From NCBI GenBank assembly GCA_964019135.1, contig OZ025249.1:32625759-32689758 (forward strand): 64,000 nucleotides of DNA. The letters run 5' to 3'. The position numbers and the translations under genes are program-made. The DNA comes from Arenicola marina. Taxonomy: Eukaryota; Annelida; Polychaeta; Arenicolidae. The first letter of the stretch is position 1. The number at the start of each line of letters is the position of its first letter. This document shows, piece by piece, positions 1 to 64,000 of this stretch. The notes beneath the pieces are model-generated. The model saw only the letters and a list, made by a program, of their open reading frames with translations. It did no database searches and was not told the origin of the DNA.

Positions 1-802
1 GCCAGGGTGGCGGCCACGCCTTGCTGCAGGCGCCATGGAGGTCATCTGGAGCTCTGAGAGAGCGAGAGAGACGCTAGGTACAAGGCCAGGGTGGCGGCCA
101 CGCCTTGCTTCAGGCGCCATGGAGGTCATCTGGAGCTCTGAGAGAGCGAGAGAGACGCTAGGTACAAGGCCAGGGTGGCGGCCACGCCTTGCTTCAGGCG
201 CCATGGAGGTCATCTGGAGCTCTGAGAGAGCAAGAGAGACGCTAGGTACAAGGCCAGGGTGGCGGCCACGCCTTGCCTCAGGCGCCATGGAGGTCATCGG
301 GAACTCTGAGAGAGCGAGAGAGACGCTAGGTACAAGGCCAGGGTGGCGGCCACGCCTTGCTTCAGGCGCCATGGAGGTCATCTGGAGCTCTGAGAGAGTG
401 AGAGAGACGCTAGGTACAAGGCCAGGGTGGCGGCCACGCCTTGCTTCAGGCACCATGGAGGTCATCTGGAGATCACAGAGAGTGAGCGAGACGCTAGGTA
501 CAAGGCCAGGGTGGCGGCCACGCCTTGCTTCAGGCGCCATGGAGGTCATCTGGAGCTCACAGAGAGTGAGAGAGACGCTAGGTACAAGGCCAGAGTGGCG
601 GCCACGCCTTGCTTCAGGCGCCATGGAGGTCATCTGGAGCTCTGAGAGAGTGAGAGAGACGCTGGGTACAAGGCCAGGGTGGCGGCCACGCCTTGCTTCA
701 GGCGCCATGGAGGTCATCTGGAGCTCTGAGAGAGCGAGAGAGACGCTAGGTACAAGGCCAGGGTGGCGGCCACGCCTTGCTTCAGGCGCCATGGAGGTCA
801 TC

Positions 803-3738
803 TAGAGCTCTGAGAGAGTGAGAGAGACGCTGGGTACAAGGCCAGGGTGGCGGCCACGCCTTGCTTCAGGCGCCATGGAGGTCATCTGGAGCTCTGAGAG
901 AGTGAGAGAGACGCTAGGTACAAGGCCAGGGTGGCGGCCACGCCTTGCTTCAGGCACCATGGAGGTCATCTGGAGCTCTGAGAGAGCGAGAGAGACGCTA
1001 GGTACAAGGCCAGGGTGGCGGCCACGCCTTGCTTCAGGCGCCATGGAGGTCATCTGGAGCTCTGAGAGAGCGAGAGAGACGCTAGGTACAAGGCCAGGGT
1101 GGCGGCCACGCCTTGCTTCAGGCGCCATGGAGGTCATCTGGAGCTCACAGAGAGTGAGTGAGACGCTAGGTACAAGGCCAGGGTGGCGGCCACGCCTTGC
1201 TTCAGGCGCCATGGAGGTCATCTGGAGCTCTGAGAGAGCGAGAGAGACGCTAGGTACAAGGCCAGGGTGGCGGCCACGCCTTGCTTCAGGCGCCATGGAG
1301 GTCATCTGGAGCTCTGAGAGAGCGAGAGAGACGCTAGGTACAAGGCCAGGGTGGCGGCCACGCCTTGCTTCAGGCGCCATGAAGGTCATCTGGAGCTCAC
1401 AGAGAGTGAGCGAGACGCTAGGTACAAGGCCAGGGTGGCGGCCACGCCTTGTCTCAGGCGCCATGGCGGTCATCTGGAGCTCTGAGAGAGCGAGAGAGAC
1501 GCTAGGTACAAGGCCAGGGTGGCGGCCACGCCTTGCTGCAGGCGCCATGGAGATCATCTGGAGCTCTGAGAGAGCGAGAGAGACGCTAGGTACAAGGCCA
1601 GGGTGGCGGCCACGCCTTGCTTCAGGCGCCATGGAAGTCATCTGGAGCTCTGAGAGAGCGAGAGAGACGCTAGGTACAAGGCCAGGGTGGCGGCCACGCC
1701 TTGCTTCAGGCGCCATGGAGGTCATCTGGAGCTCTGAGACAGCGAGAGAGACGCTAGGTACAAGGCCAGGGTGGCGGCCACGCCTTGCTTCAGGCGCCAT
1801 GGAGGTCATCTGGAGCTCTGAGAGAGCGAGAGAGACGCTAGGTACAAGGCCAGGGTGGCGGCCACGCCTTGCCTCAGGCGCCATGGAGGTCATCGGGAAC
1901 TCTGAGAGAGCGAGAGAGACGCTAGGTACAAGGCCAGGGTGGCGGCCACGCCTTGCTTCAGGCGCCATGGAGGTCATCTGGAGCTCTGAGAGAGTGAGAG
2001 AGACGCTAGGTACAAGGCCAGGGTGGCGGCCACGCCTTGCTTCAGGCGCCATGGAGGTCATATGGAGCTCTGAGAGAGTGAGAGAGACGCTAGGTACAAG
2101 GCCAGGGTGGCGGCCACGCCTTGCTTCAGGCGCCATGGAGGTCATCTGGAGCTCACAGAGAGTGAGAGACGCTAGGTACAAGGCCAGAGTGGCGGCCACG
2201 CCTTGCTTCAGGCGCCATGGAAGTCAACTGGAGCTCTGAGAGAGTGAGAGAGACGCTGGGTACAAGGCAAGGGTGGCGGCCACGCCTTGCTTCAGGCGCC
2301 ATGGAGGTCATCTGGAGCTCTGAGAGAGTGAGAGAGACGCTAGGTACAAGGCCAGGGTGGCGGCCACGCCTTGCTTCAGGCACCATGGAGGTCATCTGGA
2401 GCTCTGAGAGAGCGAGAGAGACGCTAGGTACAAGGCCAGGGTGGCGGCCACGCCTTGCTTCAGGCGCCATGGAGGTCATCTGGAGCTCTGAGAGAGTGAG
2501 AGAAACGCTAGGTACAAGGCCAGGGTGGCGGCCACGCCTTGCTTCAGGCGCCATGGAGGTCATCTGGAGCTCTGAGAGAGTGAGAGAGACGCTAGGTACA
2601 AGGCCAGGGTGGCGGCCACGCCTTGCTTCAGGCACCATGGAGGTCATCTGGAGCTCTGAGAGAGCGAGAGAGACGCTAGGTACAAGGCCAGGGTGGCGGC
2701 CACGCCTTGCTTCAGGCGCCATGAAGGTCATCTGGAGCTCACAGAGAGTGAGCGAGCCGCTAGGTACAAGGCCAGGGTGGCGGCCACGCCTTGCTTCAGG
2801 CGCCATGGAGGTCATCTGGAGCTCTGAGAGAGCGAGAGAGACGCTAGGTACAAGGCCAGGGTGGCGGCCACGCCTTGCTTCAGGCGCCATGGGGGTCATC
2901 TGGAGCTCTGAGAGAGCGAGAGAGACGCTAGGTACAAGGCCAGGGTGGCGGCCACGCCTTGCTTCAGGCGCCATGAAGGTCATCTGGAGCTCACAGAGAG
3001 TGAGCGAGACGCTAGGTACAAGGCCAGGGTGGCGGCCATGCCTTGTCTCAGGCGCCATGGCCGTCATCTGGAGCTCTGAGAGAGCGAGAGAGACGCTAGG
3101 TACAAGGCCAGGGTGGCGGCCACGCCTTGCTGCAGGCGCCATGGAGGTCATCTGGAGCTCTGAGAGAGCGAGAGAGACGCTAGGTACAAGGCCAGGGTGG
3201 CGGCCACGCCTTGCTTCAGGCGCCATGGAAGTCATCTGGAGCTCTGAGAGAGCGAGAGAGACGCTAGGTACAAGGCCAGGGTGGCGGCCACGCCTTGCTT
3301 CAGGCGCCATGGAGGTCATCTGGAGCTCTGAGAGAGCGAGAGAGACGCTAGGTACAAGGCCAGGGTGGCGGCCACGCCTTGCTTCAGGCGCCATGGAGGT
3401 CATCTGGAGCTCTGAGAGCGAGAGAGACGCTAGGTACAAGGCCAGGGTGGCGGCCACGCCTTGCTTCAGGCGCCATGAAGGTCATCTGGAGCTCACAGAG
3501 AGTGAGCGAGACGCTAGGTACAAGGCCAGGGTGGCGGCCACGCCTTGCTTCAGGCGCCATGGAGGTCATCTGGAGCTCTGAGAGAGTGAGAGAGACGCTG
3601 GGTACAAGGCCAGGGTGGCGGCCACGCCTTGCTTCAGGCGCCATGGAGGTCATCTGGAGCTCTGAGAGAGCGAGAGAGACGCTAGGTACAAGGCCAGGGT
3701 GGCGGCCACGCCTTGCTTCAGGCGCCATGGAGGTCATC
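803..3738. repeat. Higher-order repeat copy 1 (35 monomers, 84-bp satellite)
   Basis: One full period between successive TAG-bearing monomers (TCATCTAGAGC at about 801 and 3737). Rare markers recur at the same offsets in the next copy: CATCGGGAAC at 1891 and 4827, GTCAACTGGAGC near 2222 and 5158, and GGCCATGCC near 3035 and 5971. The period is 2936 bp, that is 35 x 84 minus two 2-bp deletions. Confidence 0.9.
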
Positions 3739-6676
3739 TAGAGCTCTGAGAGAGTGAGAGAGACGCTAGGTACAAGGCCAGGGTGGCGGCCACGCCTTGC
3801 TTCAGGCGCCATGGAGGTCATCTGGAGCTCTGAGAGAGTGAGAGAGACGCTAGGTACAAGGCCAGGGTGGCGGCCACGCCTTGCTTCAGGCACCATGGAG
3901 GTCATCTGGAGCTCTGAGAGAGCGAGAGAGACGCTAGGTACAAGGCCAGGGTGGCGGCCACGCCTTGCTTCAGGCGCCATGGAGGTCATCTGGAGCTCTG
4001 AGAGAGCGAGAGAGACGCTAGGTACAAGGCCAGGGTGGCGGCCACGCCTTGCTTCAGGCGCCATGGAGGTCATCTGGAGCTCACAGAGAGTGAGTGAGAC
4101 GCTAGGTACAAGGCCAGGGTGGCGGCCACGCCTTGCTTCAGGCGCCATGGAGGTCATCTGGAGCTCTGAGAGAGCGAGAGAGACGCTAGGTACAAGGCCA
4201 GGGTGGCGGCCACGCCTTGCTTCAGGCGCCATGGAGGTCATCTGGAGCTCTGAGAGAGCGAGAGAGACGCTAGGTACAAGGCCAGGGTGGCGGCCACGCC
4301 TTGCTTCAGGCGCCATGGAAGTCATCTGGAGCTCTGAGAGAGCGAGAGAGACGCTAGGTACAAGGCCAGGGTGGCGGCCACGCCTTGCTTCAGGCGCCAT
4401 GGAGGTCATCTGGAGCTCTGAGAGAGCGAGAGAGACGCTAGGTACAAGGCCAGGGTGGCGGCCACGCCTTGCTTCAGGCGCCATGGAGGTCATCTGGAGC
4501 TCTGAGAGAGCGAGAGAGACGCTAGGTACAAGGCCAGGGTGGCGGCCACGCCTTGCTTCAGGCGCCATGAAGGTCATCTGGAGCTCACAGAGAGTGAGCG
4601 AGACGCTAGGTACAAGGCCAGGGTGGCGGCCACGCCTTGCTTCAGGCGCCATGGAGGTCATCTGGAGCTCTGAGAGAGTGAGAGAGACGCTGGGTACAAG
4701 GCCAGGATGGCGGCCACGCCTTGCTTCAGGCGCCATGGAGGTCATCTGGAGCTCTGAGAGAGCGAGAGAGACGCTAGGTACAAGGCCAGGGTGGCGGCCA
4801 CGCCTTGCCTCAGGCGCCATGGAGGTCATCGGGAACTCTGAGAGAGCGAGAGAGACGCTAGGTACAAGGCCAGGGTGGCGGCCACGCCTTGCTTCAGGCG
4901 CCATGGAGGTCATCTGGAGCTCTGAGAGAGTGAGAGAGACGCTAGGTACAAGGCCAGGGTGGCGGCCACGCCTTGCTTCAGGCGCCATGGAGGTCATATG
5001 GAGCTCTGAGAGAGTGAGAGAGACGCTAGGTACAAGGCCAGGGTGGCGGCCACGCCTTGCTTCAGGCGCCATGGAGGTCATCTGGAGCTCACAGAGAGTG
5101 AGAGACGCTAGGTACAAGGCCAGAGTGGCGGCCACGCCTTGCTTCAGGCGCCATGGAAGTCAACTGGAGCTCTGAGAGAGTGAGAGAGACGCTGGGTACA
5201 AGGCAAGGGTGGCGGCCACGCCTTGCTTCAGGCGCCATGGAGGTCATCTGGAGCTCTGAGAGAGTGAGAGAGACGCTAGGTACAAGGCCAGGGTGGCGGC
5301 CACGCCTTGCTTCAGGCACCATGGAGGTCATCTGGAGCTCTGAGAGAGCGAGAGAGACGCTAGGTACAAGGCCAGGGTGGCGGCCACGCCTTGCTTCAGG
5401 CGCCATGGAGGTCATCTGGAGCTCTGAGAGAGTGAGAGAGACGCTAGGTACAAGGCCAGGGTGGCGGCCACGCCTTGCTTCAGGCGCCATGGAGGTCATC
5501 TGGAGCTCTGAGAGAGTGAGAGAGACGCTAGGTACAAGGCCAGGGTGGCGGCCACGCCTTGCTTCAGGCACCATGGAGGTCATCTGGAGCTCTGAGAGAG
5601 CGAGAGAGACGCTAGGTACAAGGCCAGGGTGGCGGCCACGCCTTGCTTCAGGCGCCATGAAGGTCATCTGGAGCTCACAGAGAGTGAGCGAGACGCTAGG
5701 TACAAGGCCAGGGTGGCGGCCACGCCTTGCTTCAGGCGCCATGGAGGTCATCTGGAGCTCTGAGAGAGCGAGAGAGACGCTAGGTACAAGGCCAGGGTGG
5801 CGGCCACGCCTTGCTTCAGGCGCCATGGGGGTCATCTGGAGCTCTGAGAGAGCGAGAGAGACGCTAGGTACAAGGCCAGGGTGGCGGCCACGCCTTGCTT
5901 CAGGCGCCATGAAGGTCATCTGGAGCTCACAGAGAGTGAGCGAGACGCTAGGTACAAGGCCAGGGTGGCGGCCATGCCTTGTCTCAGGCGCCATGGCGGT
6001 CATCTGGAGCTCTGAGAGAGCGAGAGAGACGCTAGGTACAAGGCCAGGGTGGCGGCCACGCCTTGCTGCAGGCGCCATGGAGGTCATCTGGAGCTCTGAG
6101 AGAGCGAGAGAGACGCTAGGTACAAGGCCAGGGTGGCGGCCACGCCTTGCTTCAGGCGCCATGGAAGTCATCTGGAGCTCTGAGAGAGCGAGAGAGACGC
6201 TAGGTACAAGGCCAGGGTGGCGGCCACGCCTTGCTTCAGGCGCCATGGAGGTCATCTGGAGCTCTGAGAGAGCGAGAGAGACGCTAGGTACAAGGCCAGG
6301 GTGGCGGCCACGCCTTGCTTCAGGCGCCATGGAGGTCATCTGGAGCTCTGAGAGAGCGAGAGAGACGCTAGGTACAAGGCCAGGGTGGCGGCCACGCCTT
6401 GCTTCAGGCGCCATGAAGGTCATCTGGAGCTCACAGAGAGTGAGCGAGACGCTAGGTACAAGGCCAGGGTGGCGGCCACGCCTTGCTTCAGGCGCCATGG
6501 AGGTCATCTGGAGCTCTGAGAGAGTGAGAGAGACGCTGGGTACAAGGCCAGGGTGGCGGCCACGCCTTGCTTCAGGCGCCATGGAGGTCATCTGGAGCTC
6601 TGAGAGAGCGAGAGAGACGCTAGGTACAAGGCCAGGGTGGCGGCCACGCCTTGCTTCAGGCGCCATGGAGGTCATC
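3739..6676. repeat. Higher-order repeat copy 2 (35 monomers, 84-bp satellite)
   Basis: Second full 35-monomer period, 2938 bp (35 x 84 minus one 2-bp deletion). It matches copy 1 at both ends. In the middle (about 4310-4730) the run of variant monomers differs from copies 1 and 3, which share a block with CTTGTCTCAGG followed by ATGGCGGTC that copy 2 lacks. The monomer count is unchanged. Confidence 0.88.
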
Positions 6677-9400
6677 TAGAGCTCTGAGAGAGTGAGAGAG
6701 ACGCTGGGTACAAGGCCAGGGTGGCGGCCACGCTTTGCTTCAGGCGCCATGGAGGTCATCTGGAGCTCTGAGAGAGTGAGAGAGACGCTAGGTACAAGGC
6801 CAGGGTGGCGGCCACGCCTTGCTTCAGGCACCATGGAGGTCATCTGGAGCTCTGAGAGAGCGAGAGAGACGCTAGGTACAAGGCCAGGGTGGCGGCCACG
6901 CCTTGCTTCAGGCGCCATGGAGGTCATCTGGAGCTCTGAGAGAGCGAGAGAGACGCTAGGTACAAGGCCAGGGTGGCGGCCACGCCTTGCTTCAGGCGCC
7001 ATGGAGGTCATCTGGAGCTCACAGAGAGTGAGTGAGACGCTAGGTACAAGGCCAGGGTGGCGGCCACGCCTTGCTTCAGGCGCCATGGAGGTCATCTGGA
7101 GCTCTGAGAGAGCGAGAGAGACGCTAGGTACAAGGCCAGGGTGGCGGCCACGCCTTGCTTCAGGCGCCATGGAGGTCATCTGGAGCTCTGAGAGAGCGAG
7201 AGAGACGCTAGGTACAAGGCCAGGGTGGCGGCCACGCCTTGCTTCAGGCGCCATGAAGGTCATCTGGAGCTCACAGAGAGTGAGCGAGACGCTAGGTACA
7301 AGGCCAGGGTGGCGGCCACGCCTTGTCTCAGGCGCCATGGCGGTCATCTGGAGCTCTGAGAGAGCGAGAGAGACGCTAGGTACAAGGCCAGGGTGGCGGC
7401 CACGCCTTGCTGCAGGCGTCATGGAGGTCATCTGGAGCTCTGAGAGAGCGAGAGAGACGCTAGGTACAAGGCCAGGGTGGCGGCCACGCCTTGCTTCAGG
7501 CGCCATGGAAGTCATCTGGAGCTCTGAGAGAGCGAGAGAGACGCTAGGTACAAGGCCAGGGTGGCGGCCACGCCTTGCTTCAGGCGCCATGGAGGTCATC
7601 TGGAGCTCTGAGAGAGCGAGAGAGACGCTAGGTACAAGGCCAGGGTGGCGGCCACGCCTTGCTTCAGGCGCCATGGAGGTCATCTGGAGCTCTGAGAGAG
7701 CGAGAGAGACGCTAGGTACAAGGCCAGGGTGGCGGCCACGCCTTGCCTCAGGCGCCATGGAGGTCATCGGGAACTCTGAGAGAGCGAGAGAGACGCTAGG
7801 TACAAGGCCAGGGTGGCGGCCACGCCTTGCTTCAGGCGCCATGGAGGTCATCTGGAGCTCTGAGAGAGTGAGAGAGACGCTAGGTACAAGGCCAGGGTGG
7901 CGGCCACGCCTTGCTTCAGGCGCCATGGAGGTCATATGGAGCTCTGAGAGAGTGAGAGAGACGCTAGGTACAAGGCCAGGGTGGCGGCCACGCCTTGCTT
8001 CAGGCGCCATGGAGGTCATCTGGAGCTCACAGAGAGTGAGAGACGCTAGGTACAAGGCCAGAGTGGCGGCCACGCCTTGCTTCAGGCGCCATGGAAGTCA
8101 ACTGGAGCTCTGAGAGAGTGAGAGAGACGCTGGGTACAAGGCAAGGGTGGCGGCCACGCCTTGCTTCAGGCGCCATGGAGGTCATCTGGAGCTCTGAGAG
8201 AGTGAGAGAGACGCTAGGTACAAGGCCAGGGTGGCGGCCACGCCTTGCTTCAGGCACCATGGAGGTCATCTGGAGCTCTGAGAGAGCGAGAGAGACGCTA
8301 GGTACAAGGCCAGGGTGGCGGCCACGCCTTGCTTCAGGCGCCATGGAGGTCATCTGGAGCTCTGAGAGAGTGAGAGAGACGCTAGGTACAAGGCCAGGGT
8401 GGCGGCCACGCCTTGCTTCAGGCGCCATGGTGGTCATCTGGAGCTCTGAGAGAGTGAGAGAGACGCTAGGTACAAGGCCAGGGTGGCGGCCACGCCTTGC
8501 TTCAGGCACCATGGAGGTCATCTGGAGCTCTGAGAGAGCGAGAGAGACGCTAGGTACAAGGCCAGGGTGGCGGCCACGCCTTGCTTCAGGCGCCATGAAG
8601 GTCATCTGGAGCTCACAGAGAGTGAGCGAGACGCTAGGTACAAGGCCAGGGTGGCGGCCACGCCTTGCTTCAGGCGCCATGGAGGTCATCTGGAGCTCTG
8701 AGAGAGCGAGAGAGACGCTAGGTACAAGGCCAGGGTGGCGGCCACGCCTTGCTTCAGGCGCCATGGGGGTCATCTGGAGCTCTGAGAGAGCGAGAGAGAC
8801 GCTAGGTACAAGGCCAGGGTGGCGGCCACGCCTTGCTTCAGGCGCCATGAAGGTCATCTGGAGCTCACAGAGAGTGAGCGAGACGCTAGGTACAAGGCCA
8901 GGGTGGCGGCCATGCCTTGTCTCAGGCGCCATGGCGGTCATCTGGAGCTCTGAGAGAGCGAGAGAGACGCTAGGTACAAGGCCAGGGTGGCGGCCACGCC
9001 TTGCTTCAGGCGCCATGGAGGTCATCTGGAGCTCTGAGAGAGCGAGAGAGACGCTAGGTACAAGGCCAGGGTGGCGGCCACGCCTTGCTTCAGGCGCCAT
9101 GGAAGTCATCTGGAGCTCTGAGAGAGCGAGAGAGACGCTAGGTACAAGGCCAGGGTGGCGGCCACGCCTTGCTTCAGGCGCCATGGAGGTCATATGGAGC
9201 TCTGAGAGAGCGAGAGAGACGCTAGGTACAAGGCCAGGGTGGCGGCCACGCCTTGCTTCAGGCGCCATGGAGGTCATCTGGAGCTCTGAGAGAGCGAGAG
9301 AGACGCTAGGTACAAGGCCAGGGTGGCGGCCACGCCTTGCTTCAGGCGCCATGAAGGTCATCTGGAGCTCACAGAGAGTGAGCGAGACGCTAGGTACAAG
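6677..9400. repeat. Higher-order repeat copy 3 (partial, order diverges at the end)
   Basis: Third copy starting at the TAG-bearing monomer (6677). The marker CATCGGGAAC lies at 7765 (2938 bp after its copy 2 match) and GGCCATGCC near 8909 (2938 bp later). After about 9400 the monomer order no longer follows copies 1 and 2. The next CATCGGGAAC marker, at 9863, comes about 25 rather than 35 monomers later. No TAG-bearing monomer is seen where copy 4 would start. Confidence 0.75.
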
Positions 9401-12400
9401 GCCAGGGTGGCGGCCACGCCTTGTCTCAGGCGCCATGGCGGTCATCTGGAGCTCTGAGAGAGCGAGAGAGACGCTAGGTACAAGGCCAGGGTGGCGGCCA
9501 CGCCTTGTCTCAGGCGCCATGGAGGTCATCTGGAGCTCTGAGAGAGCGAGAGAGACGCTAGGTACAAGGCCAGGGTGGCGGCCACGCCTTGCTTCAGGCG
9601 CCATGGAAGTCATCTGGAGCTCTGAGAGAGCGAGAGAGACGCTAGGTACAAGGCCAGGGTGGCGGCCACGCCTTGCTTCAGGCGCCATGGAGGTCATCTG
9701 GAGCTCTGAGAGAGCGAGAGAGACGCTAGGTACAAGGCCAGGGTGGCGGCCACGCCTTGCTTCAGGCGCCATGGAGGTCATCTGGAGCTCTGAGAGAGCG
9801 AGAGAGACGCTAGGTACAAGGCCAGGGTGGCGGCCACGCCTTGCCTCAGGCGCCATGGAGGTCATCGGGAACTCTGAGAGAGCGAGAGAGACGCTAGGTA
9901 CAAGGCCAGGGTGGCGGCCTCGCCTTGCTTCAGGCGCCATGGAGGTCATCTGGAGCTCTGAGAGAGTGAGAGAGACGCTAGGTACAAGGCCAGGGTGGCG
10001 GCCACGCCTTGCTTCAGGCGCCATGGAGGTCATATGGAGCTCTGAGAGAGTGAGAGAGATGCTAGGTACAAGGCCAGGGTGGCGGCCACGCCTTGCTTCA
10101 GGCGCCATGGAGGTCATCTGGAGCTCACAGAGAGTGAGAGAGACGCTAGGTACAAGGCCAGAGTGGCGGCCACGCCTTGCTTCAGGCGCCATGGAGGTCA
10201 ACTGGAGCTCTGAGAGAGTGAGAGAGACGCTGGGTACAAGGCCAGGGTGGCGGCCACGCCTTGCTTCAGGCGCCATGGAGGTCATCTGGAGCTCTGAGAG
10301 AGCGAGAGAGACGCTAGGTACAAGGCCAGGGTGGCGGCCACGCCTTGCTTCAGGCACCATGGAGGTCATCTGGAGCTCTGAGAGAGCGAGAGAGACGCTA
10401 GGTACAAGGCCAGGGTGGCGGCCACGCCTTGCTTCAGTCGCCATGGAGGTCATCTGGAGCTCTGAGAGAGTGAGAGAGACGCTAGGTACAAGGCCAGGGT
10501 GGCGGCCACGCCTTGCTTCAGGCGCCATGGAGGTCATCTGGAGCTCTGAGAGAGTACCAGAGACGCTAGGTACAAGGCCAGGGTGGCGGCCACGCCTTGC
10601 TTCAGGCACCATGGAGGTCATCTGGAGCTCTGAGAGAGCGAGAGAGACGCTAGGTACAAGGCCAGGGTGGCGGCCACGCCTTGCTTCAGGCGCCATGGAG
10701 GTCCTCTGGAGCTCTGAGAGAGCGAGAGAGACGCTAGGTACAAGGCCAGGGTGGCGGCCACGCCTTGCTTCAGGCGCCATGAAGGTCATCTGGAGCTCAC
10801 AGAGAGTGAGCGAGACGCTAGGTACAAGGCCAGGGTGGCGGCCACGCCTTGCTTCTGGCGCCATGGAGGTCATCTGGAGCTCTGAGAGAGCGAGAGAGAC
10901 GCTAGGTACAAGGCCAGGGTGGCGGCCACGCCTTGCTTCAGGCGCCATGGGGGTCATCTGGAGCTCTGAGAGAGCGAGAGAGACGCTAGGTACAAGGCCA
11001 GGGTGGCGGCCACGCCTTGCTTCAGGCGCCATGAAGGTCATATGGAGCTCACAGAGAGTGAGCGAGACGCTAGGTACAAGGCCAGGGTGGCGGCCACGCC
11101 TTGTCTCAGGCGCCATGGCGGTCATCTGGAGCTCTGAGAGAGCGAGAGAGACGCTAGGTACAAGGCCAGGGTGGCGGCCACACCTTGCTTCAGGCGCCAT
11201 GGAGGTCATCTGGAGCTCTGAGAGAGCGAGAGAGACGCTAGGTACAAGGCCAGGGTGGCGGCCACGCCTTGCTTCAGGCGCCATGGAAGTCATCTGGAGC
11301 TCTGAGAGAGCGAGAGAGACGCTAGGTACAAGGCCAGGGTGGCGGCCACGCCTTGCTTCAGGCGCCATGGAGGTCATCTGGAGCTCTGAGAGAGCGAGAG
11401 AGACGCTAGGTACAAGGCCAGGGTGGCGGCCACGCCTTGCTTCAGGCGCCATGGAGGTCATCTGGAGCTCTGAGAGAGCGAGAGAGACGCTAGGTACAAG
11501 GCCAGGGTGGCGGCCACGCCTTGCTTCAGGCGCCATGGAAGTCATCTGGAGCTCTGAGAGAGCGAGAGAGACGCTAGGTACAAGGCCAGGGTGGCGGCCA
11601 CGCCTTGCTTCAGGCGCCATGGAGGTCATCTGGAGCTCTGAGAGAGTGAGCGAGACGCTAGGTACAAGGCCAGGGTGGCGGCCACGCCTTGCTTCAGGCA
11701 CCATGGAGGTCATATGGAGCTCTGAGAGAGTGAGAGAGACGCTAGGTACAAGGCCAGGGTGGCGGCCACGCCTTGCTTCAGGCGCCATGGAAGTCATCTG
11801 GAGCTCTGAGAGAGCGAGAGAGACGCTAGGTACAAGGCCAGGGTGGCGGCCACGCCTTGCTTCAGGCGCCATGGAGGTCATCTGGAGCTCTGAGAGAGTG
11901 AGCGAGACGCTAGGTACAAGGCCAGGGTGGCGACCACGCCTTGCTTCAGGCGCCATGGAAGTCATCTGGAGCTCTGAGAGAGTGAGAGAGACGCTAGGTA
12001 CAAGGCCAGGGTGGCAGCCACGCCTTGCTTCAGGCGCCATGAAGGTCATCTATGGCTCTGAGAGAGTGCGAGGGACGCTAGGTACAAGGCCAGAGTGGCG
12101 GCCACGCCTTGCTTCAGGCGCCATGAAGGTCATCTGGAGCTCTGAGAGAGCGAGAGAGACGCTAGGTACAAGGCCAGGGTGGCGGCCACGCCTTGCTTCA
12201 GGCACCATGGAGGTCATCTGGAGCTCTGAGAGAGTGAGAGAGACGCTAGGTACAAGGCCAGAGTGGCGGCCACGCCTTGCTTCAGGCGCCATGGAGGTCA
12301 TATGGAGCTCTGAGAGAGTGAGAGAGACGCTAGGTACAAGGCCAGGGTGGCAGCCACGCCTTGCTTCAGGCGCCATGGAGGTCATCTGGAGCTCACAGAG

Positions 12401-13159
12401 AGTGAGAGAGACGCTAGGTACAAGGCCAGGGTGGCGGCCACGCCTTGCTTCAGGCGCCATGGAGGTCATCTGGAGATCACAGAGAGTGAGCGAGACGCTA
12501 GGTACAAGGCCAGGGTGGCGGCCACGCCTTGCTTCAGGCGCCATGGAGGTCATCTGGAGCTCTGAGAGAGCGAGAGAGACGCTAGGTACAAGGCCAGGGT
12601 GGCGGCCATGCCTTGCTTCAGGCTCCATGGGGGTCATCTGGAGCTCTGAGAGAGCGAGAGAGACGCTAGGTACAAGGCCAGGGTGGCGGCCACGCCTTGC
12701 TTCAGGCGCCATGGGGGTCATCTGGAGCTCTGAGAGAGTGAGAGAGACGCTAGGTACAAGGCCAGGGTGGCGGCCACGCCTTGCTTCAGGCGCCATGGAG
12801 GTCATCTGGAGCTCTGAGAGAGTGAGAGAGACGCTAGGTACAAGGCCAGGGTGGCGGCCACGCCTTGCTTCAGGCGCCATGGAGGTCATCTGGAGCTCAG
12901 AGAGAGTGAGAGAGACGCTAGGTACAAGGCCAGGGTGGCGGCCACGCCTTGCTTCAGGAGCCATGGAGGTCATCTATGGCTCTGAGAGAGCGAGAGAGAC
13001 GCTAGGTCCAAGGCCAGGGTGGCGGCCACGCCTTGCTTCAGGCGCCATGGAGGTCATCTGGAGCTCTGAGAGAGCGAGAGAGACGCTAGGTACAAGGCCA
13101 GGGTGGCGGCCACGCCTTGCTTTAGGCACCATGGGGGTCATCTGGAGCTCTGAGAGAGT

Positions 13160-13960
13160 GAGAGAGACGCCAGACACAAAGGGTGGCGGCCACGCCTTGC
13201 TTCAGGCGCCATGAAGGTCATCTGTGGCTCTGAGAGAGCGAGAGAGACGCCAGACACAAAGGGTGGCGGCCACGCCTTGCTTCAGGCGCCATGGGGGTCA
13301 TCTGGAGCTCTGAGAGAGCGAGAGAGACGCTAGGTACAAGGCCAGGGTGGCGGCCACGCCTTGCTTCAGGCGCCATGAAGGTCATCTATGGCTCTGAGAG
13401 AGCGAGAGAGACGCCAGACACAAAAGGGTGGCGGCCACGCCTTGCTTCAGGCGCCATGGAGGTCATCTATGGCTCTGAGAGAGCGAGAGAGACGCCAGAC
13501 ACAAAGGGTGGCGGCCACGCCTTGCTTCAGGCGCCATGGAGGTCATCTATGGCTCTGAGAGAGCGAGAGAGACGCCAGACACAAAGGGTGGCGGCCACGC
13601 CTTGCTTCAGGCGCCATGGGGGTCATCTGGAGCTCTGAGAGAGCGAGAGAGACGCTAGGTACAAGGCCAGGGTGGCGGCCACGCCTTGCTTCAGGCGCCA
13701 TGAAGGTCATCTATGGCTCTGAGAGAGCGAGAGAGACGCCAGACACAAAAGGGTGGCAGCCACGCCTTGCTTCAGGCGCCATGGAGGTCATCTATGGCTC
13801 TGAGAGAGCGAGAGAGACGCCAGACACAAAAGGGTGGCGGCCACGCCTTGCTTCAGGCGCCATGGAGGTCATCTATGGCTCTGAGAGAGCGAGAGAGACG
13901 CCAGACACAAAGGGTGGCGGCCACGCCTTGCTTCAGGCGCCATCGAGGTCATCTGATGCT
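13160..13960. repeat. Right edge of 84-bp array: 80/81-bp variant monomers and a 4-monomer HOR
   Basis: From about 13168 most monomers replace GCTAGGTACAAGGCCAGGG with GCCAGACACAAAGGG and read CTATGGCTC instead of CTGGAGCTC, giving 80- or 81-bp units. A four-monomer block (84+81+80+80 bp, 13291-13615) is repeated as 84+81+81+80 bp (13616-13941). The last recognisable monomer decays near 13942-13965 into unique sequence. Confidence 0.9.
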
Positions 13961-14274
13961 CAGAGACAAAGAGACTCTAAACATGAGACGAGACTGTAAA
14001 ACACACATGATAGGGTACATGCACGCCTCCGCAGACAAAACTCTACTGTGCCACGAATACGATGGCCGCTGAGAATTACCCTTGCGGGTCTTGGCGACTG
14101 CTCGACCTGCCACGCGAGGTTTGTATTTCTGGGCGTCATGGAGGGTCATGGAGGGCGGTCCCCACCATCTCTATCTTTAGATGGTTCGGGAACATGGCAC
14201 TTGGATTGTGATCTCTCACGGTGAATTTTCTTGTTCATGCGCCATGTACGTATGGGGCGCCAAGTGTTACCCCC
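13961..14274. other. Unannotated spacer between satellite and foldback element
   Basis: Unique sequence with no convincing gene, RNA or repeat. Short open frames here have no recognisable product. Confidence 0.6.
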
Positions 14275-22720: not shown

Positions 22721-22949
22721 GAATTGTTTTTCACCAACAAGTGTTCGTTTTGCCAAAAGAAGCACTCTTTTTACCAAACACCGCTTCAGTGTATATAAGC
22801 CTAAGTTTTTCTTCTTGTTAGATGTGACCCCGATCGATGGCAGAAAAGAAATGATGTTGGAAAAAGGAAAACAAAACAATGCTTCCTGTTCGCCCTGGAG
22901 TCGTTTGCATTGCCAACTAATGTTCAACTGGTCAAAAAAACATGGTTAC
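22721..22949. other. Junction between P and Q in copy 1
   Basis: Not matched at the P-Q boundaries of copy 2, but the motif around AGTGTTCGTTTTGCCAA (near 22740) recurs at about 32257 inside the 8-kb region that interrupts copy 2. A TATATAAG occurs near 22791. No gene is supported. Confidence 0.45.
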
Positions 22950-39510: not shown

Positions 39511-42500
39511 TACCCCATACCTCCCCATCACATACCGCCCCGTCACATACCGCCCCATTACATACCTCCCCATCACATACCGCCCCGTCACATACCACCC
39601 CATCACATACCGCCCCATCTTATACTGCCCCATCACATACCACTCCGTCACATACCTCCCCATCAGATACCGCCAGGTCACATACCGTCCCATCACATAC
39701 CGCCCCATCAATTACCGCCCCATCACATACCGCCCCATCCCATACCGCCCCATCACATACCGCCCCATCACATACCGCCCCATCACATACCGCCCAATCC
39801 CATACCACCCCATCACATACCACCCCATCACATACCGCCCCATCACATACCGCCCCATCACATACCGCTCTATCACATACCACCCCATCACATACCACCC
39901 CATCACATACCACCTTGCCACATACCACCCCATCACATACCACCCTGTCACATACCGCCCCATCACATACCACCCCATCACATACCGCCCCATCACATAC
40001 CACCCCATCACATACCGCCCCATCACATACTACCCCATCCCACACCGCCCCATCACATACCACCCCTTCACATACCACCCCATCACATACCCCCCCATCA
40101 CATACCCCCCCATCCCATACCACCCCATCACATACCACCCTGCCACATACCACCCCATCCCATACCACCCCATCACATACCTCCCCATCACATACCGCCC
40201 CATCCCATACGACCCCATCACATACGACCCCATCACATACCGCCTCATCCCATACCACCCCATCACATACCTCCCCATCACATACCGCCCCATCCCATAC
40301 GACCCCATCACATACCACCCCATCACATACCGCCCAATCCCATACCACCCCATCACATACCACCCCATCACATACCGCTCCATAACATACCACCCCATCA
40401 CATACCGCCCCATCCCATACCGCTCCATCACATACCGCCCCATCCCATACCGCTCCATCCCATACCACCCCATCACATACGACCCATCACATACCGCCCC
40501 ATCCCATACCGCCCCATCCCATACCACCCATCACATACCCCCCCATCACATACCGCTCCATCACATACCACCCATCACATACCGCCCCATCCCATACCGC
40601 CCCATTCCATACCACCCCATCACATACCACCCCATCACATACCGCCCCATCACATACCACCCCATCACACACCACCCTGCCACATACCACCCCCTCACGT
40701 ACCGCCCCATCACATACCGCCCCATCACATACCGCCCCATCACATACCGCCCCATTATACCGACCCGTGACATACCGCCCATCCCATACCGCCCAATCAC
40801 ATACCGCCCCATCCCATACCGCCCCATCACATACCACCCCATCACATACCACCCCATCACATACCACCCCATCACATACCAGCCCATCACATACCGCCCC
40901 ATCACATACCCCCCCATCACATACCACCCCATCACATACCGCCCCATCACATACCGCCCCTCCCATACCGCTCCATCACATACCACCCCATCACATACCA
41001 CCCCATCACATACCCCCCCATCACATACCCCCCCATCCCATACCACCCCATCACATACCACCCTGCCACATACCACCCCATCCCATACCACCCCATCACA
41101 TACCACCCCATCACATTCCGCCCCATCACATACCGCCTCATCATATACTACCCCGTCACATACCGCCCCATCCCATACCACCCCATCACATACCACCCCA
41201 TCACATACCACCCCATCACATATCGCCCCATCCAATACCGCCACATCACATACCGCCCCATCACATACCGCCCCATCACATACTACCCCATCACATACTA
41301 CCCCATCCAATACCACCCAGTCACATACCACCCCATCACATACCACCCCATCACATACCACCCCGTCACATACTGCCCCATCACATACCACCTCATCACA
41401 TATCGCCCCATCACGTACCGCCCCATCACATACCGCCCCATCCCATACCGCCCCATCCCATACCGCCCCATCCCATACCACCCCATCACGTACCGCCCCA
41501 TCACATACCGCCCCATCACATACCGCCCAATCCCATACCACCCCATCACATACCACCCTGCCACATACCGCCCCATCACATACCGCCCCATCACATACCG
41601 CCCAATCCCATGCCACCCCATCATATACCACCCCATCACATACCAACCCATCACATACCACCCCGTCACATACTGCCCCATCACATACCACCTCATCACA
41701 TATCGCCCCATCACGTACCGCCCCATCACATACCGCCCCATCCCATACCACCCTGCCACATACCACCCCATCACATACCACCCTGTCACATACCGCCCCA
41801 TCACATACCACCCCATCACATACCGCCCCATCACATACCACCCCATCACATACCGCCCCATCACATACTACCCCATCCCACACCGCCCCATCACATACCA
41901 CCCCATCACATACCACCCCATCACATACCCCCCCATCACATACCCCCCCATCCCATACCACCCCATCACATACCACCCTGCCACATACCACCCCATCCCA
42001 TACCACCCCATCACATACCTCCCCATCACATACCGCCCCATCCCATACGACCCCATCACATACGACCCCATCACATACCGCCCCATCCCATACCACCCCA
42101 TCACATACCTCCCCATCACATACCGCCCCATCCCATACGACCCCATCACATACCACCCCATCACATACCGCCCAATCCCATACCACCCGATCACATACCA
42201 CCCCATCACATACCGCTCCATAACATACCACCCCATCACATACCGCCCCATCCCATACCGCTCCATCACATACCACCCCATCACATACCCCCCCATCACA
42301 TACCGCTCCATCACATACCACCCATCACATACCGCCCCATCCCATACCGCCCCATCCCATACCACCCCATCACATACCACCCCATCACATACCGCCCCAT
42401 CACATACCACCCCATCACATACCACCCTGCCACATACCACCCCCTCACGTACCGCCCCATCACATACCGCCCCATCACATACCGCCCCATCACATACCGC

Positions 42501-44008
42501 CCCATTATACCGACCCGTGACATACCGCCCATCCCATACCGCCCAATCACATACCGCCCCATCCCATACCGCCCCATCACATACCAGCCCATCACATACC
42601 GCCCCATCACATACCCCCCCATCACATACCGCCCCATCACATACCGCCCCATCACGTACCGCCCCATCACATACCAGCCCATCACATACCCCCCCATCAC
42701 ATACCGCCCCATCACATACCACCCCATCACGTACCGCCCCATCACATACCGCCTCATCACATACCGCCCCATCCCATACCGCTCCATCACATACCACCCC
42801 ATCACATACCGCCCCATCCCATACCGCCCCATCCCATACCACCCCATCACATACCACCCATCACATACCACCCCATCACATAACACCCCATCACATACCA
42901 CCCCATCACATACCACCCCATCACATACCGCCCCATCACATACCGCCCCATCACATACCACCCCATCACATTCCGCCCCATCACATACCGCCCCATCACA
43001 TACTACCCCGTCACATACCGCCCCATCTCATACCACCCCACCACATACCACCCCATCACATACCACCCCATCACATATCGCCCCATCCAATACCGCTACA
43101 TCACATACCGCCCCATCCAATACCACCCAGTCACATACCACCCCATCACATACCACCCCATCACATACCACCCCATCACATACCACCCCGTCACATACTG
43201 CCCCATCACATACCACCTCATCACATATCGCCCCATCACGTACCGCCCCATCACATACCGCCCCATCCCATACCGCCCCATCCCATACCGCCCCATCCCA
43301 TACCACCCCATCACGTACCGCCCCATCACATACCGCCCCATCACATACCGCCCAATCCCATACCACCCCATCACATACCACCCTGCCACATACCGCCCCA
43401 TCACATACCGCCCCATCACATACCGCCCAATCCCATACCACCCCATCACATACCACCCTGCCACATACCGCCCCATCACATACCGCCCCATCACATACCG
43501 CCCAATCCCATGCCACCCCATCATATACCAACCCATCACATACCACCCCGTCACATACTGCCCCATCACATACCACCTCATCACATATCGCCCCATCACG
43601 TACCGCCCCATCACATACCGCCCCATCCCATACCGCCCCATCCCATACCGCCCCATCCCATACCACCCCATCACGTACCGCCCCATCACATACCGCCCCA
43701 TCCCATACCGCCCAAGCCCATACCACCCCATCACATACCACCCTGCCACATACCGCCCCATCACATACCGCCCCATCACATACCACCCCATCACATACCA
43801 CCCCATCACATACCGCCCCATCACATACCGCCCGCTCCATCAGATACCGCCCCATCACATACCACCCCATCACATACCACCCTGCCACATACCGCCCCAT
43901 CACATACCGCCCCATCACATACCGACCGCTCCATCAGATACCGCCCCATCACATACCGCACGCTCCATCAGATACCGCCCCATCACATGTCGTCCCCATC
44001 ACATACCT
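39511..44008. repeat. 15-bp satellite array, about 300 units, with internal duplication
   Basis: Units are mostly CCCATCACATACCGC or CCCATCACATACCAC, with recurring variants (CCCATCCCATACC, ACCCTGCCACATACC, GACCCGTGACATACC). The period of 15 keeps frames open on both strands (TPSHT, HHIPP or PITYR repeats on plus), so these are not called genes. A block of nearly 0.9 kb recurs downstream: CCATAACATACC lies at 40380 and 42218 (offset 1838), and CCCATTATACCGACCCG at 40751 and 42501 (offset 1750). The right edge (43830-43980) switches to a compound unit with CGCTCCATCAGATACCGC. No telomere or known centromere motif was recognised. Confidence 0.97.
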
Positions 44009-45718: not shown

Positions 45719-45918
45719 NNNNNNNNNNNNNNNNNNNNNNNNNNNNNNNNNNNNNNNNNNNNNNNNNNNNNNNNNNNNNNNNNNNNNNNNNNNNNNNNNN
45801 NNNNNNNNNNNNNNNNNNNNNNNNNNNNNNNNNNNNNNNNNNNNNNNNNNNNNNNNNNNNNNNNNNNNNNNNNNNNNNNNNNNNNNNNNNNNNNNNNNNN
45901 NNNNNNNNNNNNNNNNNN
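45719..45918. other. Assembly gap of 200 N
   Basis: Exactly 200 N. The round number suggests a fixed-size scaffolding gap of unknown true length. Confidence 0.99.
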
Positions 45919-59235: not shown

Positions 59236-59590
59236 CACCTCCCACCTATATACCCACCAACCCATCCACCCACACCACCCACCCACCATCCACCCATACA
59301 CGCTGCCACCTCCCACATATATACCCACCAACCCATCCACCCACACCACCCAACCACCACCCACCCATACACCCCGCCACCTCCCACCTATATACCCACC
59401 AACCCTTTCACCCACACCACCTACCCACCACCCACCCATACACCCCGCAACCTCCCACCTATATATACACCAACCCACCCATACACCCCGCAACCTCCCA
59501 CCCATACACCCCGCAAACTCCCACCTATATACCCACCAACCCACCCATCCACACCACCCACCCACCACCCACGCATACACCCCGCCACCT
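59236..59590. repeat. 70-72-bp repeat, about five units, at the left edge of the 35-bp satellite
   Basis: Units begin CCACCTCCCACCTATATACC and continue with CACC/CCAC-rich sequence to CCCATACACCCCG. The last units are shortened. The array passes without a break into the 35-bp satellite, and the two share the motif CCACCTC followed by a TATATACC or ATATACC. Confidence 0.88.
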
Positions 59591-62500
59591 TCACTTTCCA
59601 CCTCTCACACCGTACATATACCCTTTCACCTTCCACCTCTCACACCGTACATATACAATTTCACCTTCCACCTCTCACACCGTACATATACCCTTTCACC
59701 TTCCACCTCTCACACCGTACATATACCCTTTCACCTTCCACCTCTCACACGTTACATATACCCTTTCACCTTCCACCTCTCACACCGTACATTAACCATT
59801 TCACCTTCCACCTCTCACACCGTACATATACCCTTTCAACTTCCACCTCTCACACCGTACATATACCCTTTCACCTTCCACCTCTCACACCGTACATATA
59901 TACCCTTTCACCTTCCACCTCTCACACCGTACATATACCATTTCACCTTCCACCTCTCTCACCGTACATATATACCCTTTCACCTTCCACCTCTCACACC
60001 GTACATATAGCCTTTCACCTTCCACCTCTCACACCGTACATATACCCTTCCACATTCCACCTCTCACACCGTACATATACCCTTTAACTTTCCACCTATA
60101 ACACCGTACATATACCCTTTCACCTTCCACCTCTCACACCGTACATATATACCCTTTCAGCTTCCACCTCTCACACCGTACATATACCCTTTCACCTTCC
60201 ACCTCTCACACCGTACATATACCCTTTCACCTTCCACCTCTCACACCGTACATATACCCTTTCACCTTCCACCTCTCACACCGTACATATACCCTTTCAC
60301 CTTCCACCTCTCACACCGTACATATACCCTTTCACCTTCCACCTCTCACACCGTACATATATACCCTTTCACCTTCCACCTCTCACACCGTACATATACC
60401 CTTTAACCTTCCACCTCTCACTCCGTACATATACCCTTTCACCTTCCACCTCTCACACCGTACATAAATACCCTTTCAGCTTCCACCTCTCACACCGTAC
60501 ATATACCCTTTCACCTTCCGCCTCTCACACCGTACATATACCCTTTCACCTTCCACCTCTCACACCGTACATATATACCTTTTCACCTTCAACCTCTCAC
60601 ACCGTACATATACCCTTTCACCTTCCGCCTCTCACATCGTACATATACCCTTTCACCTTCCACCTCTCACACCGTACATATACCCTTTCACCTTCCACCT
60701 CTCACACCGTACATATATACCCTTTCACCTTCCACCTCTCGCACCGTAAATATACCCTTTCACCTTCCGCCTCTCACACCGTACATATACCCTTTCACCT
60801 TCCACCTCTCACACCGTACATATACCCTTTCACCTTCCACCTCTCACACCGTACATATACCTATTCACCTTCCACCTCTCACACCGTACATATACCCTTT
60901 CACCTTCCACCTCTCACACCGTACATGTACCCTTTCACCTTCCACCTCTCACACCGTATATATACCCTTGCACCTTCCACCTCTCACACCGTACATATAC
61001 CCTTTCACCTTCCACCTCTCACACCGTACATATACCCTTTCACCTTCCACCTCTCACACCGTACATATACCCTTTCACCTTCCACCTCTCACACCGTACA
61101 TATACCCTTTCATGTCCCACCTCTCACACCGTACATATACCCTTTCACTTTCCACCTCTCACACCGTACATATACCCTTTCATCTCTCACCTCTCACACC
61201 GTACATATACCCTTTCACCTTCCACCTCTCACACCTTACATATACCCTTTCACCTTCCACCTCTCACACCGTACATATACCCTTTCATCTTCCACCTCTC
61301 ACACCGTACATATACCCTTTCACCTTCCACCTCTCACACCGTACATATACCCTTTCATATCACACCTCTCACACCGTACATATACCCTTTCACTTTCCAC
61401 ATCTCACACCGTACATATACCCTTTCACCTTCCACCTCTCACACCGTACATATACCCTTTCACCTTCCGCCTCTCACACCGTACATATACCCTTTCACTT
61501 TCCACCTCTCACACCGTACATATACCCTTTCACCTTCCACCTCTCACACCGTACATATACCCTTTCACCTTCCACCTCTCACACCGTACATATACCCTTT
61601 CACCTTCCACCTCTCACACCGTACATATACCCTTTCACCTTCCACCTCTCACACTGTACATATACCCTTTCACCTTCCACCTCTCAAACCGTACATATAC
61701 CCTTTCATCTCCCACCTCTCACACCGTACATATACCCTTTCACATTCCACCTCTCACACCGTACTTATACCCTTTCACCTTCCACCTCTCACACCGTATA
61801 TATACTCTCCACCTTCCACCTCTCACACCGTACATATACCCTTTTACCTTCCACCTCTCACACCGTACATATACCCATTCACCTTCCACCTCTCACACCG
61901 TACATATACCATTTCACCTTCCACCTCTCACACCGTATATATACCCTTTCACTTTCCATATCTCACACCGTACATATACCCTTTCACCTTCCACCTCTCA
62001 CACCGTACATATACCCTTTCACTTTCCACCTCTCACACCGTACATATACCCTTTCACCTTCCACCTCTCACACCGTACATATACCCTTTCACCTTCCACC
62101 TCTCACACCGTACATATACCCTTTCACCTTCCACCTCTCACACGTTACATATACCCTTTCACCTTCCACCTCTCACACCGTACATTAACCATTTCACCTT
62201 CCACCTCTCACACCGTACATATACCCTTTCACCTTCCACCTCTCACACCGTACATATACCCTTTCACCTCCCACCTCTCACACCGTACATATACCCTTTC
62301 ACCTTCCACCTCTCACACCGTACATATATACCCTTTCACCTTCCAACTCTCACACCGTACATATACCATTTCACCTTCCACCTCTCTCACCGTACATATA
62401 CCCTTTCACCTTCCACCTCTCACACCGTACATATACCCTTTCACCTTCCACCTCTCACACCGTACATATACCCTTTCACCTTCCACCTCTCACACCGTAC

Positions 62501-64000
62501 ATATAGCCTTTCACCTTCCACCTCTCACACCGTACATATACCCTTTCACATTCCAACTCTCACACCGTGCATATATCCTTTCACCTTCCACCTCTCTCAC
62601 CGTACATATACCCTTTCACCTTCCACCTCTCACACCGTACATATACCCTTTCACCTCCCACCTCTCACACCGTACATATACCCTTTCACCTTCCACCTCT
62701 CACACCGTACATATAGCCTTTCACCTTCCACCTCTCACACCGTACATATACCCTTTCACATTCCACCTCTCACACCGTACATATACCCTTTAACTTTCCA
62801 CCTCTAACACCGTACATATACCCTTTCACCTTCCACCTCTCACACCGTACATATATACCCTTTCAGCTTCCACCTCTCACACCGTACATATACCCTTTCA
62901 CCTTCCACCTCTCACACCGTACATATACCCTTTCACCTTCCACCTCTCACACCGTACATATACCCTTTCACCTTCCACCTCTCACACCGTACATATACCC
63001 TTTCACCTTCCACCTCTCACACCGTACATATACCCTTTCACCTTCCACCTCTCACACCGTACATATATACCCTTTCACCTTTCACCTCTCACACCGTACA
63101 CATACCCTTTAACCTTCCACCTCTCACTCCGTACATATACCCTTTCACCTTCCACCTCTCACACCGTACATAAATACCCTTTCAGCTTCCACCTCTCACC
63201 CCGTACATATACCCTTTCACCTTCCGCCTCTCACACCGTACATATACCCTTTCACCTTCCACCTCTCACACCGTACATATATACCCTTTCACCTTCAACC
63301 TCTCACACCGTACATATACGATTTCACCTTCCGCCTCTCACATCGTACATATACCCTTTCACTTTCCACCTCTCACACCGTACATATACCCTTTCACCTT
63401 CCACCTCTCACACCGTACATATACCCTTTCACCTTCCACCTCTCACACCGTACATATACCCTTTCACCTTCCACCTCTCACACTGTACATATACCCTTTC
63501 ACCTTCCACCTCTCAAACCGTACATATACCCTTTCATCTCCCACCTCTCACACCGTACATATACCCTTTCACCTTCCACCTCTCACACCGTACTTATACC
63601 CTTTCACCTTCCACTTCTCACACCGTATATATACTCTCCACCTTCCACCTCTCACACCGTACATATACCCTTTTACCTTCCACCTCTCACACCGTACATA
63701 TACCCATTCACCTTCCACCTCTCACACCGTACATATACCATTTCACCTTCCACCTCTCACACCGTATATATACCCTTTCACTTTCCATATCTCACACCGT
63801 ATATATACCCTTTCACCTTCCACCTCGCACATCGTACATATACCCTTTCACTTTCCACCTCTCACACCGTACATATACCCTTTCACCTTCCACCTCTCAC
63901 ACCGTACATATACAATTTCACCTTCCACCTCTCACACCGTACATATACCCTTTCACCTTCCACCTCTCACACCGTACATATACCCTTTCACCTTCCACCT
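59591..64000. repeat. 35-bp satellite array, about 126 units, running off the window
   Basis: Units contain CCACCTCTCACACCGTACAT followed by ATACCCTTTCACCTT. Some units are 37 bp through an extra TA (CATATATACCC). Because 35 is not divisible by three, each plus-strand frame cycles through all phases every 105 bp, yet it stays open for 1.8 kb since the unit lacks stops in all three phases. Rare variants recur at fixed offsets: ATTAACCATTTC near 59790 and 62182; CTTTAACTTTCC near 60081 and 62785; ATACTCTCCACC near 61803 and 63632. These show kilobase-scale internal duplications. Confidence 0.97.

What the first reader, a model, noticed from the sequence alone, without database searches (positions are those of the whole stretch)
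803..9400. 35-monomer higher-order repeat in an 84-bp satellite
Four independent rare markers (TAG monomer, CATCGGGAAC, GTCAACTGG, GGCCATGCC) all recur at 2936 then 2938 bp. The shortfalls from 2940 are explained by 2-bp deletions inside each period, so the period is exactly 35 monomers. Higher-order organisation this long is unusual for a minisatellite-sized unit outside centromeric satellites, and implies recent unequal exchange between multi-kilobase blocks.
Basis: seen in the sequence. Interest (0 to 1): 0.75.

Follow-up and report, generated by a model that had tools for sequence, protein, structure and literature searches.

The report
Three-copy block repeat inside an 84-bp satellite
A tandem array of an 84-letter DNA unit in an animal genome really does contain a larger repeating block of 35 units, about 2.9 kb long and present three times, but this looks like the ordinary result of block exchange within tandem arrays, and two unrelated arrays nearby show kilobase-sized block copies too.

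Summary
The window opens inside an 84-bp array (1-13987, 167 monomers, cut at the window's left end). Monomers 6-111 (505-9400) repeat in phase every 35 monomers (2936, then 2938 bp), giving three copies 98.9-99.4% alike. The lag-35 match scores 133 against at most 24 in 150 monomer-order shuffles. Broken-phase partial copies lie on both sides and the right edge is degenerate. In the middle copy a 375-586-bp tract is replaced, without length change, by the segment found 22 monomers further on: a conversion-like event that also argues against assembly duplication.

Multi-monomer exchange is well supported. But long higher-order repeats (HORs) of small units outside centromeres are in print: a 61-bp human VNTR at Xp22.33 has 1.6- and 2.5-kb ones (PMC2588610, passages). 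All three arrays here with over 100 monomers (84, 15, 35 bp) carry block copies 1.75-2.94 kb apart; two shorter tested arrays do not. Neutral simulations often give block copies when exchanges span tens of monomers. No sign of coding or centromere function was found. It is a new instance of a known kind. Species, chromosomal position and read support could not be checked.

The parts
1..13987 (+). 84-bp tandem array, 167 monomers (the last one degenerate), open at the left end of the window
1..420 (+). Partial, broken-phase HOR copy (HOR phases 10-14); the phase then jumps to 31
   Evidence: 0.7% from the HOR reference
505..9400 (+). In-phase 35-monomer HOR region: 106 monomers, 3.03 periods
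757..3692 (+). HOR copy A, monomers 9-43, 2936 bp (two 2-bp deletions)
3693..6630 (+). HOR copy B, monomers 44-78, 2938 bp (one 2-bp deletion); 99.1% to A, 98.9% to C
6631..9400 (+). HOR copy C, monomers 79-111 (33 of 35); the next two monomers (9401-9568) already follow another phase
4223..4808 (+). Conversion-like tract in copy B (maximum extent; minimum 4318-4692): HOR phases 7-12 replaced by the segment of phases 29-34, same length
   Evidence: donor-like at 18 of 18 sites where A and C agree and differ from the donor
6127..6630 (+). Segment most like the donor of that tract (monomers 73-78; 1 difference). Next is the same phase in copy A, monomers 38-43 (3 differences)
9401..11500 (+). 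Diverged fourth HOR copy: monomers 112-126 match phases 8-22 (19 of 1260 differ), monomer 127 is extra, monomers 128-136 match phases 23-31 (5 of 756 differ; a rival fit to phase 4 has 8)
   Evidence: the phase map, which allows no insertion, cuts this stretch differently
11501..13987 (+). Right edge of the array; best 19-monomer fit of monomers 137-155 to the HOR region has 56 of 1596 differences; monomer forms of 77-83 bp from 13097
13260..13910 (+). Second, small HOR at the edge: two imperfect copies of a 4-monomer unit of 325-326 bp
39906..43784 (+). Unrelated 15-bp array with block copies 1750-1838 bp apart (39916-40436 = 41754-42274; 40527-40960 = 42277-42710; 41321-41611 = 43146-43436); shorter offsets (360, 915 bp and others) also occur
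59590..64000 (+). Unrelated 35-bp array with block copies 2706 bp apart (59970-60717 = 62676-63423) and 1829 bp apart (61515-62171 = 63344-64000), cut by the window's right end

Best explanation
It is a non-coding satellite (a long minisatellite) of an animal genome in which a block of 35 monomers was tandemly amplified to three copies by homologous exchange between misaligned arrays. Shown: three in-phase copies about 99% alike, differences private to single copies, one same-length replaced tract, phase jumps on both sides, and higher divergence towards the right edge. Inferred: a first duplication of about 2.9 kb by unequal exchange (or break repair) between similar monomers; then preferred pairing in the new 35-monomer register gave the third copy; then point mutations, 2-bp slippage in GA runs and one gene-conversion event marked the copies. 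No function is needed.
For: Lag-35 match score 133 against a maximum of 24.2 in 150 shuffles. Outside the replaced tract and the last two monomers, A-B differ at 6, B-C at 5 and A-C at 9 of 2268 columns. Of the 10 variable columns, A alone departs from the array consensus at 5 and C alone at 3; at the other two A and C share a departure once and A and B once, so no order of duplication is favoured. Tract in B: 18 of 18 sites donor-like, return to the original phase, no length change. The fourth copy is about 1.2% from copy C (24 of 2016 columns, extra monomer left out), and the edge is further away. Unrelated 15- and 35-bp arrays show block copies too. Neutral simulation with exchanges of 1-60 monomers: at mean distance 3.47, blocks of 1.6 or more copies in 30 of 40 runs and HORs of three or more copies in 6 of 40; at mean distance 5.15, 28 of 40 and 0 of 40; with homology-weighted exchange, three or more copies in 22 of 40 and 15 of 40. 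Exchanges of 1-10 monomers gave three or more copies in 0 of 40 in both modes.
Against: No reads, second haplotype or relative was available, so recency and polymorphism are inferred from divergence alone. The simulation is a plausibility check, not a fit: without homology weighting three copies were rare or absent; the homology-weighted runs had mean distances of 11.6-11.8, well above the real array's (3.4-4.4); a strict homology rule froze the array and gave 0 HORs in 440 runs. The test counts only lags of 20 or more monomers, which disfavours short exchanges by construction. The HOR reference is the majority of A, B and C, so its low divergence in the centre is partly built in.
Confidence: 0.83

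Rival explanations
1. Assembly artefact: one 2.9-kb block was repeated by the assembler, or two haplotypes were laid end to end.
For: Array of near-identical units; one 200-N gap in the window shows a scaffolded assembly.
Against: The gap is at 45719-45918, not in the array. Copies have private differences, including a 2-bp deletion only in A, and a replaced tract only in B that returns to phase. Two other arrays show block copies too, although these come from the same assembly.
Confidence: 0.1
2. Centromeric or pericentromeric satellite whose HOR is maintained by centromere function.
For: HOR organisation, with a homogeneous centre and a diverged edge, resembles centromere arrays (general knowledge); the anatomy is.
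Against: The array ends at 13987 next to non-satellite sequence; a rhodopsin-family receptor exon lies at about 53177-53461. CENP-B-box core: 9 matches with up to 1 mismatch in the window, 9.75 expected, none in the array; many animals lack that box (recalled), so this is weak. No telomere repeat with up to 1 mismatch. The left side of the array is not seen.
Confidence: 0.05
3. Protein-coding repeat (28 codons per monomer; the longest ORF has 1707 aa), the HOR being a by-product of a selected repetitive protein.
For: 84 is a multiple of 3 and one frame is open for long stretches.
Against: Distinct variants in the first 156 monomers: 13 synonymous, 37 non-synonymous and 2 stop, against 65, 176 and 11 possible, i.e. 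no constraint; codon positions carry 15, 19 and 18 variants. 2-bp deletions break the frame in each of the three copies. No Pfam match for the 1707-aa ORF.
Confidence: 0.02

Closest known systems
Human 61-bp VNTR array, Xp22.33 (PMC2588610; passages read)
   Same: Minisatellite-sized unit, array of similar length (18 kb), irregular HORs of 1.6 and 2.5 kb, outside centromeres
   Different: Different organism, and a different unit length. Here the period is regular over three copies; there the arrangement is described as complex
Human HSat3 / DYZ1 (3.6-kb unit of pentanucleotide origin, Y long arm; PMC4022460 and PMC2588610, passages read)
   Same: Kilobase HOR built from a unit far smaller than alpha satellite
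   Different: 5-bp unit and megabase array
Hornerin 39-bp quartic HOR (PMC9584774; passages read)
   Same: Small unit (39 bp) organised in nested HORs up to 1.41 kb outside centromeres
   Different: Lies in a gene; built as 9mer, then 2mer, then 2mer
Amphioxus 'mirage' minisatellites (PMC3087553; passages read)
   Same: Minisatellite arrays with concerted evolution inside and diverged boundary units; unequal crossing-over invoked
   Different: 3-6 units in the globin example, at intron-exon boundaries; no kilobase HOR described in the passages read

Membership tests
Satellite higher-order repeat (HOR) | Fixed number of distinguishable monomers repeated as a block, with blocks more alike than monomers | tested here: met
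   lag-35 distance 1.10 against 3.38 overall; copies 98.9-99.4% alike
Satellite higher-order repeat (HOR) | At least two complete tandem blocks in phase | tested here: met
   106 monomers in phase, 3.03 periods, 505-9400
Minisatellite / VNTR | Unit of about 10-100 bp in a kilobase array | tested here: met
   84 bp, 13.97 kb within the window
Minisatellite / VNTR | Copy-number variation between individuals | not testable with these tools
   No second individual or reads; no genome held
Centromeric satellite | Location at the kinetochore (CENP-A) | not testable with these tools
   No chromosome map; CENP-B-box-like sites at chance and none in the array
Protein-coding tandem repeat | Purifying selection on one frame | tested here: not met
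   variants follow the neutral proportions

The most novel reading that the evidence does not exclude
This genome may amplify its long minisatellites by a common process that copies blocks of about 1.8-3 kb whatever the unit length: the strongest block offsets are 1750-1838 bp (15-bp unit), 1829 and 2706 bp (35-bp unit) and 2936-2938 bp (84-bp unit), all within 64 kb. A shared length would point to a physical scale, such as repair-synthesis tract length or excised circles, and not to monomer-by-monomer exchange. Against it: shorter offsets also occur (360 and 915 bp in the 15-bp array, many of 70-700 bp at lower identity in the 35-bp array), there are only three arrays, and two of them are under 5 kb within the window, which limits the lengths that can be seen.
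Probability: 0.1. Interest if true: 0.5.

Novelty: new member of a known kind. Interest (0 to 1): 0.3.

Why it matters
It is a clean, fully readable example of how HORs form: three similar blocks, older broken copies beside them, one well-bounded conversion-like tract and a decaying edge. Block copies in two unrelated arrays within the same 64 kb suggest that kilobase exchanges are common in long minisatellites of this genome, so HOR structure by itself is not a sign of a centromere.

Tried and rejected
Coding function: rejected on the variant spectrum, frame-breaking deletions and no Pfam match. Centromere motif and telomere repeat: not found above chance. Known RNA: none at gathering score in the window; no tRNA by ARAGORN, bacterial code. 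Relatives of the repeat: no match in phages or plasmids (copy A only, blastn, E up to 1e-5), and no exact match to one 33-base pattern in viral contigs or one 40-base pattern in genome contigs. By their descriptions these collections hold bacterial, archaeal, viral and plasmid sequence, so this says nothing about distribution in animals. Own-genome search: no genome is held. Gapped BLAST self-comparison of the arrays over-extended along the monomer lag and was not used. Species: not identified. Amphioxus was only a guess behind two literature searches. A first search of solved structures with a wrongly placed stretch (53417-53620) gave no hit; the better placed one gave the orexin-receptor match.

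A mean-distance test for single lags was weaker for the 35-bp array (lag 52: 2.00 against a shuffled minimum of 2.01 in 500) than for the 15-bp (1.78 against 1.88) and 84-bp (2.83 against 3.71) arrays. The local-match test is the one quoted.

A CpG effect was looked at: 7 distinct transitions at 10 CpG positions against 12 at 43 other C/G positions, first 156 monomers. This is compatible with methylation decay, but the numbers are small and it is not used in the argument.

Simulations: the first set was uncalibrated (mean distances 12-45) and gave 1 HOR of three or more copies in 330 runs. The second, without homology rule, gave 0 of 80 (exchanges of 1), 0 of 80 (1-5), 2 of 120 (1-20) and 4 of 160 (1-60) for three or more copies, and 0 of 80, 1 of 80, 26 of 120 and 114 of 160 for 1.6 or more copies; mean distances in the 1-60 arm were 8.3-15.8. 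Its strict-homology arm gave 0 of 440. The third is the one quoted; its 1-10 arms gave 1.6 or more copies in 3 of 40 and 0 of 40.

Papers: only passages found by term search were read, in PMC2588610, PMC4022460, PMC9584774, PMC3087553 and PMC4053949. Other papers were seen only in search listings (one search listed none).

Full report
What is there. The tandem-repeat finder reports an 84-bp array at 1-13966 with 166.7 copies at 95% matches. I split it into monomers by wrap-around alignment to the consensus: 167 monomers (numbered 0-166) to 13987, the last one degenerate. The array is cut by the left end of the window.

More than chance. At lag 35 the mean distance between monomers is 1.10 of 84 columns, at lag 70 it is 1.02, and averaged over lags 3.38 (monomers 0-113). 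The lowest value at any lag from 2 to 79 in 2000 shuffles of monomer order was 2.24. In a local search over all lags and the whole array the best match is lag 35, monomers 6-76 against 41-111, score 133; the maximum in 150 shuffles was 24.2. The in-phase region is therefore 505-9400, 106 monomers.

Anatomy. Copies A (757-3692), B (3693-6630) and C (6631-9400, 33 of 35 monomers before the phase changes) are 99.1% (A-B), 98.9% (B-C) and 99.4% (A-C) alike over 35 monomers. Left of them, 1-420 follows HOR phases 10-14 and then jumps. Right of them comes a diverged fourth copy: monomers 112-126 fit phases 8-22 (19 of 1260 columns differ), monomer 127 is extra, and monomers 128-136 fit phases 23-31 best (5 of 756; the rival phase 4 has 8). 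The phase map, which allows jumps but no insertion, cuts this stretch at 9149, 10493 and 11753 instead. From 11501 the best 19-monomer fit to the HOR region has 56 of 1596 differences. From 13097 the monomers are 77-83-bp forms, among them a 4-monomer unit of 325-326 bp present twice, imperfectly. Three of the four markers also occur off-period in the broken copies and the edge.

History read from the copies. Leaving out the replaced tract and the last two monomers, A-B differ at 6, B-C at 5 and A-C at 9 of 2268 columns. Of the 10 variable columns, A alone departs from the array consensus at 5 (two of them one deletion), C alone at 3; A and C share a departure at one and A and B at one. The order of duplication is thus not resolved. 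In B, between 4223 and 4808 at most (4318 and 4692 at least), all 18 sites at which A and C agree and differ from the phase 29-34 segment have the latter's letter. The closest 6-monomer window elsewhere, monomers 73-78, differs at one site, where only B differs from all the others; next come monomers 38-43 with 3 and then windows with 8 or more. Outside those limits B follows A and C again, with no change of length. This is what gene conversion predicts; an assembly phase slip would be expected to change the length or stay out of phase.

Not coding, not evidently centromeric. Distinct variants in the open frame (first 156 monomers) fall 13: 37: 2 into synonymous, non-synonymous and stop, against 65: 176: 11 possible. 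The long reading frames are a side effect of a unit length divisible by three. CENP-B-box-like cores are at chance level and none is in the array. The host is an animal by inference: a translated stretch at 53177-53461 (minus strand) matches orexin/hypocretin receptor type 2 best among solved structures (7l1u_R, E 9.1e-33) and Pfam 7tm_1. The species is unknown and no genome is held.

Is it special? I tested five arrays of the window in the same way; other short arrays listed were not tested. The 15-bp array (300 monomers) has block copies at lags 117-123 (best score 41.0, shuffled maximum 11.1 of 60), and the 35-bp array (126 monomers) at lags 77 and 52 (20.9 and 17.0, shuffled maximum 13.5 of 150). 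The 30-bp (44 monomers; 11.0 against 15.0) and 34-bp (16 monomers; 5.5 against 9.8) arrays show none above shuffles. So 3 of 5 tested arrays, the three with more than 100 monomers, carry block copies, the strongest 1.75-2.94 kb apart. Unlike the 84-bp array, the other two show pairs of partial blocks and not three regular copies, and weaker matches at shorter offsets.

Can neutral exchange do it? Simulated arrays with exchanges of 1-60 monomers at a mean monomer distance of 3.47 showed a block of 1.6 or more copies in 30 of 40 runs and an HOR of three or more copies in 6 of 40; at a mean distance of 5.15 the counts were 28 and 0 of 40. With homology-weighted exchange 22 of 40 and 15 of 40 had three or more copies, at a larger mean distance (11.6-11.8) than observed. 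With exchanges of at most 10 monomers none did, in 40 runs of each mode. Single-monomer exchange gave none in 80 runs. The criterion asks for a lag of at least 20 monomers, so short exchanges are disfavoured by construction. The structure thus can arise from exchanges of tens of monomers without selection; three regular copies are easier with pairing by homology.

What is known. PMC2588610 (passages) describes an 18-kb array of a 61-bp repeat at Xp22.33 with irregular HORs of 1.6 and 2.5 kb, and 3.36- and 3.6-kb HORs in GAATG arrays. PMC9584774 (passages) describes the 39-bp hornerin HOR of 1.41 kb. PMC4053949 (passages) finds HORs of candidate centromere repeats prevalent across animals and plants. 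My literature searches listed no paper that I recognised, from titles and abstract beginnings, as describing this repeat.

Verdict. A true, well-resolved HOR of known kind; confirmed observation, modest interest.

Noticed in passing
14278-15005: Just right of the array lies a 20-bp minisatellite (ACGTCGACGAAAT type); 14560-14722 recurs inverted at 14838-15003 (81%), like a foldback element with tandem subrepeats in its arms.
   Followed up: partly
19066-23262, 26796-29902 and 38047-39262: Diverged dispersed copies (69-80% identity, in pieces, one of them inverted) of one or more long repeats; related copies of a 30-bp minisatellite lie beside them (24965-26276 and 38645-38815).
   Followed up: no
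53177-53461 (minus strand): Exon-like stretch closest to orexin/hypocretin receptors in solved structures (E 9.1e-33), Pfam 7tm_1.
   Followed up: partly
45719-45918: Scaffold gap of exactly 200 N.
   Followed up: no
one of 149 ORFs scanned (of 172 listed), place not found: A THAP-domain match (E 8.3e-8) in the pooled scan; two follow-up scans of 10 ORFs each did not contain it.
   Followed up: partly
51106-51646, 57821-58356, 59236-59590: Further short arrays for which the repeat finder gives double or triple periods (34/102, 30/59, 71/137 bp). In my own test the 34-bp array showed no order above shuffles; the other two were not tested.
   Followed up: partly
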